A stretch of 43,153 nt of DNA, taken from NCBI RefSeq assembly GCF_001870905.1, contig NZ_LNDC01000048.1, positions 1-43,153 of the forward strand. Direction: 5' to 3'. Below the pieces are notes generated by a model that was not told the origin of the DNA, made no database searches, and saw nothing but the letters and a program-made list of their open reading frames with translations. How positions within the stretch are numbered: the stretch's first letter is position 1; each line of letters begins with the position of its first letter. Positions 1,903 to 17,708 of the stretch are shown here, in pieces. The DNA is from Geitlerinema sp. PCC 9228. Lineage in GTDB: Bacteria; Cyanobacteriota; Cyanobacteriia; Cyanobacteriales; PCC-9228. A program made the translations under genes and the position numbers.

Positions 1903-3969
1903 TTAGCGTTTTTCTCGTAACTGCGGTAAAGTCACCGTAAAACAAGTTTGCCACTGTTCGCTTTGGTCTTGGCAAGGGGAACTGCTAACAGTAATGCTGC
2001 CATCGAGATGTTCGACCAAGCATTTTACCAGAGTCAACCCCAACCCCGTTCCGGCAACGGCTTGCTGGGTTACTCCCTGACCGCGGCGGAATTTCTCAAA
2101 AATATGCGGTAAATCTTCTTCCGCAATCCCATCGCCGTAGTTGGTCACCTGCAAAACCACCTGTTCGGTACCGTCTTGCATCTGGGAACTCACTTTAAGT
2201 TCGGCAGTGGTGTTTTTATCGGAATATTTACCGGCGTTGACCAACAATTCGCTGAGAATGCGCTGGAAATTTTCTGCTTCCGTATGCAAATAAAGGGGAT
2301 TTGGCGAGATGGCTACATCTAAGTTCAAGCCTTTTTGCTGCCACTTTTGCTGGAACTCCGCTGCTTCTTCTTGCAAAGTACTAGCTAGATCCACCCACTG
2401 CAAATTTTGCAGTTCTACTTGTTGGGATTCGTACCGTTGCAGGGTCAAGACATCGTTGACCAATTTGGACTCTTGGTGGCACTGTTTTTCTAAAATATCC
2501 AGATACAAGGCTTGCCGTTCTGGTGGTAGGTTGGGTTGGCGTAGCATACGAATCGCCAGTTGCATGCTGGTCAGCGGCGTTTTCAGTTCGTGAGACATGG
2601 TGTCTACGAACTCGTCTTTCAGTTGATTGAGGCGTCGCAGTTGGTCTACTTGCTTGCGAGTTTGTTCGTACAGTTTGGCTTGTACTTCCAAGCTGCGCTG
2701 CAATTGCGCTGTGCGTTTTTCCACCAAAGCTTGTACGGAAGTGAGGGTTTGATTGTGAATAATGGCGGTACTCAACTGCGCGGCAATGAGTTGCAGGAAA
2801 TCCAATTCATCGGTTCGCCAACCTCTGGGTTCGGCATGTTGTAGCGCCATGAAGCCTAAAACCGAGGGATGTTTGCGGTTGTCTTCGTTTTGCGCTCCCA
2901 CCAAGGGAACCAATGCCAAAGCCGGAAACTCGTGAGGATTGAAAATGGGAGCGATGCGGCGCTGGGGATGGTTGCGTAAAATGGGACGTTGGTCGGCGAT
3001 CGCTAAAACTTCTGGTGCTTGGCGATACGCTTGCTGGCACCAGTAACAATCGGAAGCGGTAAAGCTGGTATCCACCCAAGTTCGATCTTTTTGGCGGCTG
3101 GATTGCGAACCAACCACGGTGGCTTTGCTTTGCGGCATGGATGGTTGTGGCGCTTCTACCGTTGGGAAAGCTGGATCTTGAATGCCAGCAGCTTCCGAAC
3201 CGTGGCGAACTGTCGATAGCTGCGGGGTCGTATATTTGAGCAGCAAGACCTCTCCCTGCTCCATCTGCAAAACTTTGAGGACGCCTTCTATAGCCAGCTG
3301 GAAAATATCTTCTAGTTGCCAAGAGTTATGCACGGCTTTGGTCAGATCGGCAATAATCGATTGATATTGGGTAGTTATCGTTGTCTGCCGCTGCACTTGC
3401 ATCTGGAAAATGGCAATGGCGATGCGATCGGCGGCCATTTTCAGCGAATCAATTTCCTCGTCTTTCCAGGAATATGGTTGAAACTTCATAAGGACCACCA
3501 CCCCGTTTTCCTGCCCTTGAAATTGAGTTTTGGTTGCTAAAATCCCCCTAGGAAAAGATTGACCTGTCTTGGCAAATTTCTCCTGGTACTGCTGCTGCAA
3601 CTGTTGCAAGTCGCATACCACCAAAGGATCTTCCTGCATGGGGGTTTGCCAAGTTGTTAGATCGGGAAAATCCGACTCATCAACTGGTGAGGAAGTATAG
3701 GTATATATTGGTTGAATTTCCCGTTCGCTATCGGCAGCACCTAAGGTACTTGCCTTCCAATTTGATTTAGATGCCACACCAAGTAAACATATATCCGCCC
3801 CAAACCACTTCCCCACGATTTCCGTGATGGCGGGTAGCAAGGAACCTGCATCGAGTGAATGCACGATTGTCGAACAAATCCGTTGGTAGAGCAGGTTCGC
3901 ATCTGATGGTTGCTGCTCCTGTGGGGAGTGAATCATAAAAGATGACATCCCAAACAGAGACTCTATCAT
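1903..3969 (-). CDS. GAF-domain sensor histidine kinase
   Basis: This is a cytoplasmic two-component sensor kinase with no transmembrane segment. Measured from a possible TTG at 4035, an N-terminal GAF-like region spans about residues 45-215 and a second about 225-425. A Gln-rich coiled-coil linker (about 425-470) leads to the HisKA box DEFVDTMSHELKTP, with phospho-acceptor His near 482. The ATPase domain has its N box (NAGKYSD) near 600, a G1 box (GDGI) near 634 and a G2 box (GTGLGL) near 662. The start is uncertain: the first in-frame ATG (3969) is used here, and ATGs at 3948 and 3936 are also possible. None has a good ribosome-binding site. No response regulator is adjacent, so its partner and signal are unknown. 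The second GAF-like region has a CYWCQQ pair of cysteines, which could bind a ligand; that is only a guess. Confidence 0.9.
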   Translation of the reverse strand: MIESLFGMSSFMIHSPQEQQPSDANLLYQRICSTIVHSLDAGSLLPAITEIVGKWFGADICLLGVASKSNWKASTLGAADSEREIQPIYTYTSSPVDESDFPDLTTWQTPMQEDPLVVCDLQQLQQQYQEKFAKTGQSFPRGILATKTQFQGQENGVVVLMKFQPYSWKDEEIDSLKMAADRIAIAIFQMQVQRQTTITTQYQSIIADLTKAVHNSWQLEDIFQLAIEGVLKVLQMEQGEVLLLKYTTPQLSTVRHGSEAAGIQDPAFPTVEAPQPSMPQSKATVVGSQSSRQKDRTWVDTSFTASDCYWCQQAYRQAPEVLAIADQRPILRNHPQRRIAPIFNPHEFPALALVPLVGAQNEDNRKHPSVLGFMALQHAEPRGWRTDELDFLQLIAAQLSTAIIHNQTLTSVQALVEKRTAQLQRSLEVQAKLYEQTRKQVDQLRRLNQLKDEFVDTMSHELKTPLTSMQLAIRMLRQPNLPPERQALYLDILEKQCHQESKLVNDVLTLQRYESQQVELQNLQWVDLASTLQEEAAEFQQKWQQKGLNLDVAISPNPLYLHTEAENFQRILSELLVNAGKYSDKNTTAELKVSSQMQDGTEQVVLQVTNYGDGIAEEDLPHIFEKFRRGQGVTQQAVAGTGLGLTLVKCLVEHLDGSITVSSSPCQDQSEQWQTCFTVTLPQLREKR

Positions 3970-4129
3970 AGCGAATGGGAAAGATACTTGCCACAACCAG
4001 ACAGCCCGAACCTTTCGCCTATTCCAACTTCCCAAGACTTGACAGGAGTCCGGTCTGGGAATTGTTTGAGCTTAAAGTGCCCGCATATACAACCAAACAA
4101 AGAGCTAACCCATACCCGCACCTATGTTC

Positions 4130-4505
4130 GGTGAGACCGATGTCACGGAAAATCTTCGATACGTTTGCAAGCCCTGTCGCTTTAGCGCCGGGAGGAAAAA
4201 CGAACGGCGACTAAAGTCGCCTTCCCCACCAGAAAGAGGTGCAGTTTCCGCTCTTTCGGTGTTCTAGCCGGAATCGCCTACCTGGCACAGCGTTATGTTT
4301 TCCTCGCCGATGTTTTTCGGGCTGGTGGAGCTAACGGCACGGCCTGACCCCTGGTAGGGCGGTTTAACCGTTAACGGCAAAGCTACAAACACCGAAAGCA
4401 TTTGTAGGTGCCATGACCCTAAAAACGTCGCCCCAAAGGGCGAAGGGCCGATCGGCTACCTGAAGCTGGAGGCATGAAGCCCCTGTACTTTAGCCGGGTG
4501 GGCTG
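4130..4505 (+). mobile_element. Degraded IS605/IS1341-type (TnpB) element
   Basis: The segment keeps the look of an IS200/IS605-superfamily element without intact genes. Near its left side are compact hairpins, including GGCGAC-taaa-GTCGCC at 4206-4221. The right side carries a short reading frame resembling a TnpB C-terminus and ends in a subterminal hairpin, AGCCC (4478-4482) with GGGCT (4500-4504), around a CCTGTACTTTAG core typical of cyanobacterial elements of this type. There is no TnpA (Y1 transposase) frame and most of tnpB is missing, so it is an internal-deletion relic. The boundaries are approximate because this family makes no target duplications. Confidence 0.5.
4358..4477 (+). 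pseudogene. tnpB 3' remnant
   Basis: An open frame runs from just after a TAG at 4355-4357 to a TGA at 4475-4477, giving 39 residues. It begins GGLTVNGKAT and ends PIGYLKLEA, with a Cys/His-containing middle (ICRCHDP) and KNVAPKGEGP. This matches the usual tail of cyanobacterial OrfB/TnpB proteins: a GLxV-type start, an RPK-like basic patch and a final LKxEA before the stop. The upstream zinc-ribbon and RuvC parts are absent or interrupted by stops. In functional TnpB elements this part of the gene also encodes the omega (guide) RNA. The assignment rests on recognising the tail motif only. Confidence 0.45.
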
Positions 4506-5149
4506 ACTTGCTTGGTTGGGCAACCGCTGTTTTACGGTTGGCGATCGCTTGGTATTCCGGGGGATGGTTGTTGTCGGTTGTACTTAGTTCCCTATGTAGC
4601 CAGAGCTATGCAATCTGAATTTGGCGATCGCGTCTTTAGCTGCTGCTATCAATGGGGAACTTCCGCAGGCGTGGTTGTCGTCGAGGCCTCCAACGATAAC
4701 TCTTTTAGCTTAGCTTTGGCGAGACGGTTTAAACATCCGTAATTATCCGGAATAAGAGCGGAAAAAAGCAAATTGATTTTGAGGCACATTTCTCCACCCA
4801 CAACCTGCCAGTTATAAGAACAACCCATCCCCATTTGCGATCGCACCCTGGTATGGCGTGATTCTGCCAGTTTCTCCGCAGGTCTTACAACCAGGAGGCT
4901 TGACGATTGCTTTCCCACCGCTATATTGACTTCAACCGATTACGATAACTCAATTTCCAGAACTTGAGTACAAATACGTAAGAAATACTTAATATTTCTC
5001 AAAATTGGGGACACCCCCCAATACAGAGCAACTTGACGGCATGTCCCATATCGGCATAATAAATATAAAATTAACTGCGGTCGTAGCAGGGGCCGCTAAA
5101 TGCCATGAGGTTTTTTTGGGAAATCGCCGTTCATCATTGAGAGGTTTTC
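4506..5149. other. Spacer between the IS relic and comB, no firm gene
   Basis: This 640-bp spacer has no gene I can name. A plus-strand open frame at 4512-4742 (76 codons, TTG start, running in from the IS relic) encodes a plausible but unrecognised peptide and might be the 3' piece of an interrupted gene. The last 200 bp are richer in A and T and probably hold the comB promoter. The sequence TTGAGAGG just before the comB GTG at 5150 is its likely ribosome-binding site. Confidence 0.35.
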
Positions 5150-5908
5150 GTGCAATTATTTGTTTATCATACCCCCGAACTTACCCCCACCGAACCCGTT
5201 CCCAACTGCGCCGTTGCGGTGGACGTTTTGCGCGCCACCACCACCATGACAACGGCTTTGTCAGCTGGTGCCAAGTCCGTACAGGCTTTTTCCGATATCA
5301 AGCTACTCATGGAAACGAGCGAGTCCGTTCCCGCCAACCAACGGCTGCGCGCTGGCGAACGCGGTGGCAAGCAAGTTTCTGATTGCGAGATGGGAAATTC
5401 TCCCCTCGATTGTACGCCGGAAAAGGTGAGCGGACGGAAAATTTTTCTGAGTACCACCAACGGTACCCGTGCTTTACAAAAAATCAAAGCTGCTCCGGTG
5501 GCTGTGGCTGCGGCTTTGGTTAACCGGCAAGTGGTGGTGGACTATCTGGTGCAAAAACAACCGGAAACTTTGTGGATTGTCGGTTCTGGCTGGGAAGGCA
5601 GCTATTCCCTAGAAGATACGGTTTGTGCCGGTGCAATTATTGATGGTTGGCTGCAGACGACCCAAGCCACCCTCGCCGATGTGGCTGGCAACGACGAAGC
5701 GATCGCGGCGCACACGTTATATTTTCAATGGCAAAACCAACTCCTGCGTCTGATGGAGCTTTCCAGCCACGGCCGGCGCTTGTTGGGATTGGAACGCCAC
5801 GAAGATCTAAAATATTGCGCTCAATTAGATATTTTGGACGTACTGCCTTTACAAACCAGTTCGGTAGAGGAAAGCAATCCCATTTTTGCCAGCGCCGCCA
5901 ATCTCTAA
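5150..5908 (+). CDS. comB: 2-phosphosulfolactate phosphatase family protein (ComB)
   Basis: This 252-residue protein matches the ComB family, Mg-dependent phosphatases that convert 2-phospho-3-sulfolactate to sulfolactate in methanogen coenzyme M synthesis. Cyanobacteria keep ComB homologues without making coenzyme M, so the true substrate here is unknown. Family landmarks are an early [13 protein letters not shown] segment (about residues 24-36), an ERGG turn near 65, the GNSPL stretch near 83, the STTNGTRAL loop near 100 and the [12 protein letters not shown] helix near 158. The start is GTG with GAGAGG 6-12 bp upstream. The gene converges on the next one with only 15 bp between them. Confidence 0.9.
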
Positions 5909-16407: not shown

Positions 16408-16847
16408 GAAAGCAGATAGTGCTTGCCCGGTGAGGTATGCGGGTGCTGGTTTGAAGCTGGCATCGGTACACCTGACCGGGCAATTTTGTAGGATTCGGTG
16501 GAAATTCGTGGCAACAAGGACGAACCAAATCACTGGAGATGAACTGACACTCTGGTTGATGATGGTTCGGTTGCTCCAGCCTCTGTTCGTCAACTACGTT
16601 ATCGGTAAGTGCCAAAGTTCCTACCTTGGGGTGCGTCGCCAGCCCCAAGCCCGTCAATTGCAGCATTAGATAGGTCCAAGTGGTTGACAAAAGCCAGTGT
16701 GCTGGAAATGTGCCGATCGCTCACTTTAGCGAGGCGAACGTTCCCCGCGTTTTGCGGAGTTTGAGGGCAATTATCCCCCTCTCCCCAATCCAAATGAAGT
16801 CGAACATTGTCAAGTAATATAACCCATTTAGGAGGTAGTAGTTTACT
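16408..16847. other. cpcA-cpcC spacer
   Basis: This 440-bp spacer starts with the 16423-16487 stem-loop. After that I see no gene. The end has AGGAGGT about 10 bp before the cpcC GTG, which supports that start. A linker-specific promoter may lie here but was not located. Confidence 0.5.
16423..16487 (+). terminator. Partial terminator/attenuator after cpcA
   Basis: TTGCCCGGTGAGGT (16423-16436) pairs with ACCTGACCGGGCAA (16470-16483) with one mismatch, followed by a short TTTTG. The loop can fold further through GCTGG-type repeats. Such stem-loops after cpcA are known to limit read-through so that linkers are made in smaller amounts than the subunits; that role here is inferred. Confidence 0.65.
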
Positions 16848-17708
16848 GTGGCTATTACTGCAGCAGCACCTCGGTTGGGCACTTCTGCCTTTGACGAAGG
16901 TTTCCAGGTAGAACTACGTAATTTAGATGACGTAGAAGCGGTGATTCGCGCCGTTTACCGCCAAGTTCTGGGCAACGACTACGTCATGGAGTCCCAACGA
17001 CTCACCAGCGCCGAATCTTTGCTACGCAACGGCACCATCTCCGTACGCGAGTTTGTGCGCAGCGTGGCGAAATCGGAGCTGTACAAGGAGAAATTCCTGT
17101 ACGGCAACTTCCAAACCCGGGTCATCGAACTCAACTACAAACACTTGTTGGGTCGTGCCCCGTACGACGAGTCGGAAGTCATCGAACATCTCGACCTCTA
17201 TCAAAACCAAGGATTCGATGCCGAAATTGATTCTTACATCGATTCCAGCGAATATATAGAAAACTTCGGTGACAACATCGTTCCTTACTACCGCGGTTTC
17301 AACACCCAAACCAGTCAAAAAACGGTTGGGTTTACCCGCATGTTCCGCCTGTATCGCGGCTATGCCAACAGCGACAATTCCCAGCTAGAAGGCAAACGGA
17401 CGCGGTTGGCGCGGGATTTGGCGTTAAACCGTCCCGCTCCTGTGGTGGCACCTTCCGGCAACCTCACTGGCTGGAGCTATCGCCCCAACGCGCAAGACCT
17501 GCCGACCCAAGCTTTGGGCGGTTCGGTGGGCATGTCTACCGATAGCCGCATGTACCGCGTGGAAATTGTAGACACCCGCTCTGGTGGTGGCAAGTTGGCT
17601 ACCCGTCGCAGCAGCCGAGTTTTGTACGTTCCTTACGAACAGCTATCCAACAAAATGCAGCAAGTTCTGCGCCAAGGCGGAAAGATTGCCAGCGTCACCA
17701 GAGCTTAA
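16848..17708 (+). CDS. cpcC: Phycobilisome 30-35 kDa rod linker (PC-associated)
   Basis: This 286-residue rod linker has the phycobilisome linker domain at about residues 15-180, with [13 protein letters not shown] near 40, [18 protein letters not shown] near 75 and [16 protein letters not shown] near 105. A C-terminal CpcD-like domain spans about 228-286, with [13 protein letters not shown] and [14 protein letters not shown]. It joins phycocyanin hexamers into rods and tunes energy transfer. The start is GTG with AGGAGGT upstream; GTG GCT ATT matches the usual MAITAAAxRLG N-terminus. Only one such linker is present in this operon. A foldable repeat lies between it and cpcD. Confidence 0.95.

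What the first reader, a model, noticed from the sequence alone, without database searches (positions are those of the whole stretch)
4130..4505. Deletion relic of a TnpB element that keeps its right end (possible omega-RNA region)
A 39-residue frame ending PIGYLKLEA looks like a TnpB tail and is followed at once by a CCTGTACTTTAG-type subterminal hairpin. In active IS605/IS1341 elements this segment specifies the omega RNA and the element end. Here almost all of tnpB is gone but the RNA-specifying 3' part is preserved, which could be decay or an RNA serving a TnpB supplied in trans.
Basis: partly seen in the sequence, partly recalled or inferred. Interest (0 to 1): 0.5.

Follow-up and report, generated by a model that had tools for sequence, protein, structure and literature searches.

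The report
Stand-alone IscB guide-RNA mini-element
This is not a TnpB remnant but a small mobile DNA element, read from the other strand, that carries only the guide-RNA part of an IscB (Cas9-ancestor) transposon; the genome holds many relatives of it, and sister elements in another cyanobacterium often sit exactly in front of gene start codons.

Summary
Window 4292-4507, minus strand, is a HEARO RNA (RF02033, 102.9 bits, cut-off 83), the omega RNA of IscB. The "39-residue TnpB tail" is an antisense frame inside it. It belongs to a 361-bp element (4147-4507) without a nuclease gene, one of 43 HEARO matches in this cyanobacterial genome. Its 3' part matches iscB-bearing elements there, one encoding a 430-aa IscB. 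The element abuts GTGA; at one sister copy, 19 of 21 relatives have RTGA as the gene's start codon, so RTGA is target, not element. Stand-alone IscB omega RNAs are known. Additional here: an accessory 3' hairpin shared with other cyanobacteria, RNA cores exchanged between lineages (62% core against 82% tail identity), and in one relative 12 of 16 testable copies exactly on a start codon (about 9% expected), far weaker in this genome (5 of 22). Most likely an IscB supplied in trans uses the RNA to recut the empty site and keep the element; expression and cleavage are untested.

The parts
4147..4507 (-). mini-element: left end at 4507, right end at 4147; no nuclease gene inside
   Evidence: Similarity to sister copies stops at both ends; alignment of 18 copies
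4292..4507 (-). HEARO RNA (RF02033), the IscB omega-RNA scaffold
   Evidence: 102.9 bits, cut-off 83, whole model 1-211
4508..4523 (-). presumed 16-nt guide: host flank just outside the left end
   Evidence: Flank differs among the copies shown; the only exact match in the genome is this place. That IscB guides are the 5' flank is established knowledge, not tested here
4143..4146 (-). GTGA next to the right end: host target, TAM-like
   Evidence: RTGA present in relatives of sister copy L009
4222..4291 (-). accessory segment with GAAACTGCACCTCTTT (4233-4248); the 3' arm of its hairpin is partly deleted in this copy, as in L017
4197..4221 (-). hairpin followed by a T-run, terminator-like
   Evidence: 2 such sites in the region against 1.6 expected in shuffles, so the scan alone is not significant; folding z -2.94; pairing kept across copies
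4147..4196 (-). right-end region, shared with iscB-bearing elements of the genome
   Evidence: 92-95% identity over 73-81 bp with the 3' ends on C98 and C89
1903..4035 (-). neighbour downstream of the element in the same direction: GAF sensor histidine kinase
   Evidence: Pfam GAF, HisKA, HATPase_c
5150..5908 (+). neighbour on the guide side, pointing away: 2-phosphosulfolactate phosphatase family
   Evidence: PF04029; NF002056

Best explanation
Window 4147-4507 (minus strand) is a non-autonomous IscB-family mini-element: left end, complete HEARO omega-RNA scaffold, accessory hairpin segment, terminator-like hairpin and right end, inserted immediately 5' of a host GTGA. The host sequence just outside the left end is the guide. 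SHOWN: the RNA family, the boundaries, many sister copies, a 3' part shared with iscB-bearing elements, RTGA as target, and an IscB gene in the same genome. INFERRED: (1) a Y1 transposase supplied in trans moves the element; (2) a minus-strand RNA that begins in host sequence, and perhaps ends at the internal hairpin, joins an IscB made elsewhere in the genome; (3) the complex cuts the restored empty site (guide sequence followed by RTGA) after excision, or in sister chromosomes without the insert, so that repair copies the element back. The element would be a passenger that uses resident IscB to persist, as TnpB does for its own insertion sequence (PMC11870625, passages).
For: RNA family 102.9 bits over the whole model. 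43 HEARO matches in the genome, 22 at or over the cut-off, 0 of 14 control genomes. Sharp ends. Ends shared with iscB-bearing elements on C98 and C89. A 430-aa IscB on C98 (NF040563, 431 bits against a cut-off of 175). RTGA pre-exists as a start codon in 19 of 21 relatives of copy L009. The DtIsrB TAM is NTGA and stand-alone omega RNAs that can function with IscB are reported (PMC9581776 passages). Scaffold pairing over 18 copies: 81.9% of cells, slid controls 30.2-43.1%; 16 of 61 pairs with changes on both sides.
Against: No expression data. The promoter scan shows no sigma-70-like site on the minus strand upstream of the RNA (its only minus-strand site is at 3994-3965). Most both-side changes separate a 4-row from a 14-row group, so independent events are few, and the number of further pair types is not above shuffles (29 against 32.2, 480 of 500 as high). 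The only complete IscB seen (C98) has Tyr where OgeuIscB has the RuvC His340 (my reading); C89 has His but contains N stretches. No transposase was tied to the element (8 Y1 matches in the genome, none examined for a link). The single-strand DNA folds tried at the two ends are not better than shuffles (z -0.35 and +0.49). No empty site of this copy was seen: no close relative is held.
Confidence: 0.75

Rival explanations
1. Plain decay: a dead MITE-like remnant of an IscB element; the RNA structure is a leftover and no functional RNA is made.
For: No minus-strand promoter-like site upstream; part of the accessory hairpin is deleted in this copy; several HEARO copies of the genome are clearly degraded (21 of 43 below the cut-off).
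Against: This copy's scaffold covers the whole model at 102.9 bits, and pairing is kept across 18 copies. Its deletion is shared with L017, so a form without a nuclease gene seems to have moved.
Confidence: 0.35
2. One reading: a tnpB deletion relic that keeps the right end and the TnpB omega RNA.
For: The genome does hold many tnpB matches (48), and two HEARO copies (C81, C99) lie upstream of a tnpB gene.
Against: Rfam family, strand and end disagree; the frame has no TnpB similarity; none of 48 TnpB matches is on contig C48.
Confidence: 0.01
3. The RNA partner is IsrB (the HNH-less nickase relative), not IscB.
For: An IsrB-like gene on C169 (best solved match 8dmb IsrB, E 9.4e-33) starts 85 nt after the right end of a sister mini-element.
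Against: Of 16 isrB loci scanned, 5 have HEARO at E<=0.01: the C169 mini-element itself and four weak ones (32-36 bits, cut-off 83). The accessory motif is absent from the isrB loci fetched from relatives. The window's scaffold groups with the genome's iscB-linked scaffolds (100/97).
Confidence: 0.08
4. The element has been taken up by the host as a regulatory leader of the downstream histidine kinase gene.
For: It lies upstream of and in the same direction as the kinase gene. Sister copies dock on start codons with an SD-like sequence 7-8 nt before them.
Against: In the window the GTGA opens only a 13-codon frame, and the longest kinase frame starts more than 100 bp further on. Conservation of this insertion cannot be tested without a close relative.
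Confidence: 0.07

Closest known systems
HEARO RNA (Rfam RF02033), the IscB omega RNA
   Same: Whole covariance model matched over the gathering score
   Different: No iscB gene follows; an accessory segment and a right end follow instead
Stand-alone omega RNAs reported to function with IscB (cited in PMC9581776 passages; original Altae-Tran 2021 not held, details recalled)
   Same: Scaffold without its own nuclease gene, in a genome that has iscB elsewhere
   Different: Here the whole element is delimited, with ends, RTGA target, accessory hairpin and core exchange; I could not check what the original says of these
IscB-bearing elements of the same genome (C98, C89)
   Same: 3' part 92-95% identical over 73-81 bp; scaffold of the same clade
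   Different: They carry iscB directly after the scaffold; the accessory segment is absent from C98 and C89 in the blast
TnpB elements (IS605/IS1341) with right-end omega RNA
   Same: Works by the same logic: flank as guide, insertion motif as TAM (PMC11870625 passages)
   Different: RNA lies at the left end; different RNA family and nuclease

Membership tests
HEARO RNA (RF02033) | covariance-model score over the gathering cut-off | tested here: met
   102.9 against 83 bits, model 1-211
HEARO RNA (RF02033) | consensus pairing kept among copies | tested here: met
   81.9% of cells paired, slid controls 30.2-43.1%; further pair types not above shuffles
IscB (OMEGA) element | iscB gene directly 3' of the scaffold | tested here: not met
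   PF14239 has 10 matches in the genome, none on C48
IscB (OMEGA) element | IscB available in the same genome | tested here: met
   C98, 430 aa, NF040563 431 bits; RuvC-III His is Tyr by my reading
IscB (OMEGA) element | RNA-guided cleavage of the empty site next to a TAM | not testable with these tools
   Only RTGA as target was shown
non-autonomous derivative of an IscB element | shares both ends with autonomous copies of the genome | tested here: met
   Left scaffold in the same clade; 3' part 92-95% identical
non-autonomous derivative of an IscB element | moved by a Y1 transposase in trans | not tested
   8 Y1 matches in the genome, none linked to the element
TnpB element (IS605/IS1341) | tnpB C-terminus next to a right-end omega RNA | tested here: not met

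The most novel reading that the evidence does not exclude
A lineage of stand-alone IscB omega-RNA mini-elements in cyanobacteria has become a start-codon-docking passenger: it inserts exactly 5' of RTGA start codons, brings its own ribosome-binding-like sequence so that the gene stays translatable, records the gene's own leader as its guide, persists by borrowing a resident IscB, and refits itself by swapping its omega-RNA core for one that matches the IscB of its current host while keeping a conserved accessory hairpin and its ends.
Probability: 0.3. Interest if true: 0.68.

Novelty: new variant of a known kind. Interest (0 to 1): 0.45.

Why it matters
If right, guide RNAs of IscB live as independent parasites of a nuclease, much as MITEs parasitise transposases. 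One genome would then offer a natural panel of dozens of guides and targets served by a few IscB proteins, and docking on start codons would explain how such elements spread without breaking genes. It also corrects a likely kind of misreading: antisense frames inside HEARO RNA taken for TnpB tails.

Tried and rejected
TnpB tail: rejected. IsrB as partner with a longer IsrB-type RNA: proposed, then not supported, because the isrB loci fetched from relatives lack the accessory motif and have at most weak HEARO matches. HEARO-tnpB chimeric element (C81, C99): the mini-element's right end is complete apart from a GCGA ending at C81 and cut short at C99, so adjacency or nested insertion is simpler; the missing end piece was not found on the C99 stretch; not resolved. 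Exact right-end pattern in named genomes: 0 hits (the own genome may be left out). RNAalifold on whole elements gave a structure unlike Rfam's with little covariation (term -0.51); I then used the Rfam structure. A second target for the window's guide: the two one-mismatch places and two of the two-mismatch places were looked at and none is followed by RTGA; the other listed places were not looked at. Literature: the listings of searches showed no paper on start-codon docking of IscB omega-RNA elements, but Weinberg 2009, Kapitonov 2015 and Altae-Tran 2021 are not held, so it may be in print there; I recall, without a source, that Weinberg 2009 gives ATGA/GTGA as HEARO integration sites.

Full report
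WHAT IS THERE. At gathering scores Rfam finds two families in the window: a tmRNA and, on the minus strand at 4292-4507, HEARO (RF02033), 102.9 bits against a cut-off of 83, over the whole model. HEARO is the guide (omega) RNA of IscB. None of the 48 TnpB matches in the genome is on the window's contig.

THE ELEMENT. In the same genome (4.8 Mb, 223 contigs; the window is on contig C48) there are 43 HEARO matches at E<=0.001, 22 of them at or over the cut-off; 0 of 14 control genomes has one. A DNA search with window 3700-5700 (10 places scored per genome) aligned nine other places of the genome: eight begin within 9 bases of 4143, one at 4203, and all nine end within 2 bases of 4507. The usual left end is GTCAGC; the 16 nt before it differ among the copies shown, as expected of host flank. 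A right-end match was found in 27 of the 43 copies. Of the 22 of these listed, 18 end in GTGA, one in ATGA, two in GTGC and one in GTAA; the five left out are L001 and L010 (iscB-bearing), L007 (GCGA), L018 (CTAA) and L015 (a poor match, 7 errors). Between scaffold and right end lie an accessory segment with GAAACTGYACCTCTTT and a terminator-like hairpin. The terminator scan alone is not significant (2 sites, 1.6 expected), but this hairpin folds better than shuffles (z -2.94). The window copy and L017 share a 13-column deletion in the accessory hairpin.

RELATION TO iscB. Within the last 80 bp of the mini-element, 73-81 bp are 92-95% identical to the 3' ends of the iscB-bearing elements on C98 and C89. 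L012 and L008 read as internal-deletion forms of such elements with the same right end. C98 encodes a 430-aa IscB (NF040563, 431 bits, cut-off 175; RRXRR and HNH domains). Against the OgeuIscB residues D61, E193, H247, H340 and D343 (PMC9640706 passages), by my reading the C98 protein keeps the acids and the HNH His but has Tyr for H340; C89 has His there but contains N stretches. Six contigs end in near-identical right ends of the full-length type, and six more in a related right end with TTGA; I infer that recent full-length copies collapsed in assembly.

TARGET SITE. In copy L009 the right end abuts the GTG of a conserved gene. Of 21 relatives with that gene, all 21 have a start codon at this residue and 19 have RTGA; as I read the 12 codons printed upstream, none shows the right-end sequence. 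For L016 (now GTGC), 26 of the 28 matching relatives were examined: 19 have a start codon at the same residue, 12 of them RTGA. So RTGA is host sequence and the target. The published TAM of the IscB relative DtIsrB is NTGA (PMC9581776 passages). In the window the GTGA is not a gene start; it opens 13 codons.

START-CODON DOCKING. In the relative G002, of another family in the order, I fetched 27 of 28 HEARO matches. Six are followed at once by iscB, two are of another left-end type, two are cut by contig ends. Of the remaining 17 one is cut just after its right end, and 12 of the other 16 put ATGA at the start of a gene frame of at least 80 codons (sorted by my reading). NCBIfam aligns UDP-sulfoquinovose synthase from residue 1 to profile position 1 and SufB from residue 2. 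In the window 9 of 104 RTGA sites that are intergenic or at gene starts are gene starts (rough gene calls). Twelve of 16 at that rate has a binomial tail of 2e-10; 5 of 22 in the own genome (L008, a sixth long frame, left out as unverified) gives 0.04. So docking is strong in G002 and weak here, and the window copy itself does not show it. The sequence before the codon is SD-like in many copies (GGAG, GAGG or GAAG, then 7-8 nt); since copies share their right end this is one observation, not many, and translation is untested. Selection against insertions inside genes can produce part of the pattern.

ACCESSORY SEGMENT AND CORE EXCHANGE. In named genomes the accessory motif pattern was found only in uncultured cyanobacterium PMM_0019 (9 stretches) and Argonema antarcticum A004/B2 (1) (the own genome may be left out); 9 of these 10 stretches carry HEARO over the cut-off, the tenth being cut. 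A tree of 56 scaffolds puts 14 mini-elements of this genome with its iscB-linked cores (100/97), and 4 others in a group of 20 stand-alone rows from three genomes without an iscB-linked one (99/89). The mini label needs 7 changes on this tree, so it is not one clade: L007 sits with the iscB-deletion forms, and a G008 stand-alone copy sits with G008 iscB rows, which speaks for repeated origins as well. Between the two kinds in this genome, scaffold identity is 62% and tail identity 82% (59% and 82%). The simplest reading is that a stand-alone lineage exchanged its RNA core for one like that of the resident iscB element. Some part of the accessory-plus-right-end query is matched in 21 of 148 genomes of the order, the own genome included; most of these matches cover the right end only.

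RNA STRUCTURE. On 18 mini-elements with the Rfam structure, 81.9% of cells pair (slid controls 30.2-43.1%), and 16 of 61 pairs have changes on both sides; further pair types are not above shuffles. The accessory and terminator hairpins: 93.2% paired (slid 26.5-62.0%), 4 of 12 pairs with both-side changes. Most changes separate the 4-row from the 14-row group, so independent events are few. The window RNA 4195-4523 folds better than shuffles (z -3.03). Against expression: the scan found no promoter-like site on the minus strand upstream of the RNA.

MECHANISM. Shown: RNA family, boundaries, sister copies, RTGA target, shared 3' part, an IscB gene in the genome. Inferred: movement by a Y1 enzyme in trans (8 Y1 matches in the genome, none linked), transcription, loading into IscB, cutting of the empty site and copying back, by analogy with TnpB (PMC11870625 passages). 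PMC9755519 (passages) reports natural expression of HEARO 5' UTRs and only rare linkage of such nucleases with TnpA, which fits a transposase in trans.

NOVELTY. Stand-alone omega RNAs that work with IscB are already reported (cited in PMC9581776, passage), so the kind is known. The accessory module, core exchange and start-codon docking were not seen in the listings of my searches, with the caveat that the three key papers are not held.

Noticed in passing
window 16573-16744 +: A second, degraded HEARO match (40.5 bits, below the cut-off) with another left end, about 100 bp upstream of a phycobilisome linker gene (16848-17708 +).
   Followed up: partly
G000 C98 (L082:657-1946 +): The only complete IscB seen has Tyr in place of the RuvC-III His of OgeuIscB; it could be a natural nickase or simply damaged.
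   Followed up: no
G000 C169 (L083:1207-2433 -): An IsrB-like gene (best solved match 8dmb, E 9.4e-33) starts 85 nt after the right end of a sister mini-element.
   Followed up: partly
G000 C81 (L084) and C99 (L085): HEARO mini-elements lie 200-480 bp upstream of tnpB genes on the same strand; at C99 the mini-element's right end is cut short where the tnpB part begins.
   Followed up: partly
G000 contig ends C151, C8, C30, C11, C6, C2: Six contigs end in the same right end of a related element that abuts TTGA; probably another recently active family whose bodies were not assembled.
   Followed up: no
accessory hairpin loop, window 4233-4248 -: The conserved loop ACCTCTTT resembles the anti-Shine-Dalgarno end of 16S rRNA and could pair with the SD-like right end; a guess, not tested.
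   Followed up: no
PMC8400943 (one passage): A Limnospira radiation study sets HEARO RNAs among its RNA genes aside as intron remnants; its data might show omega-RNA expression.
   Followed up: no
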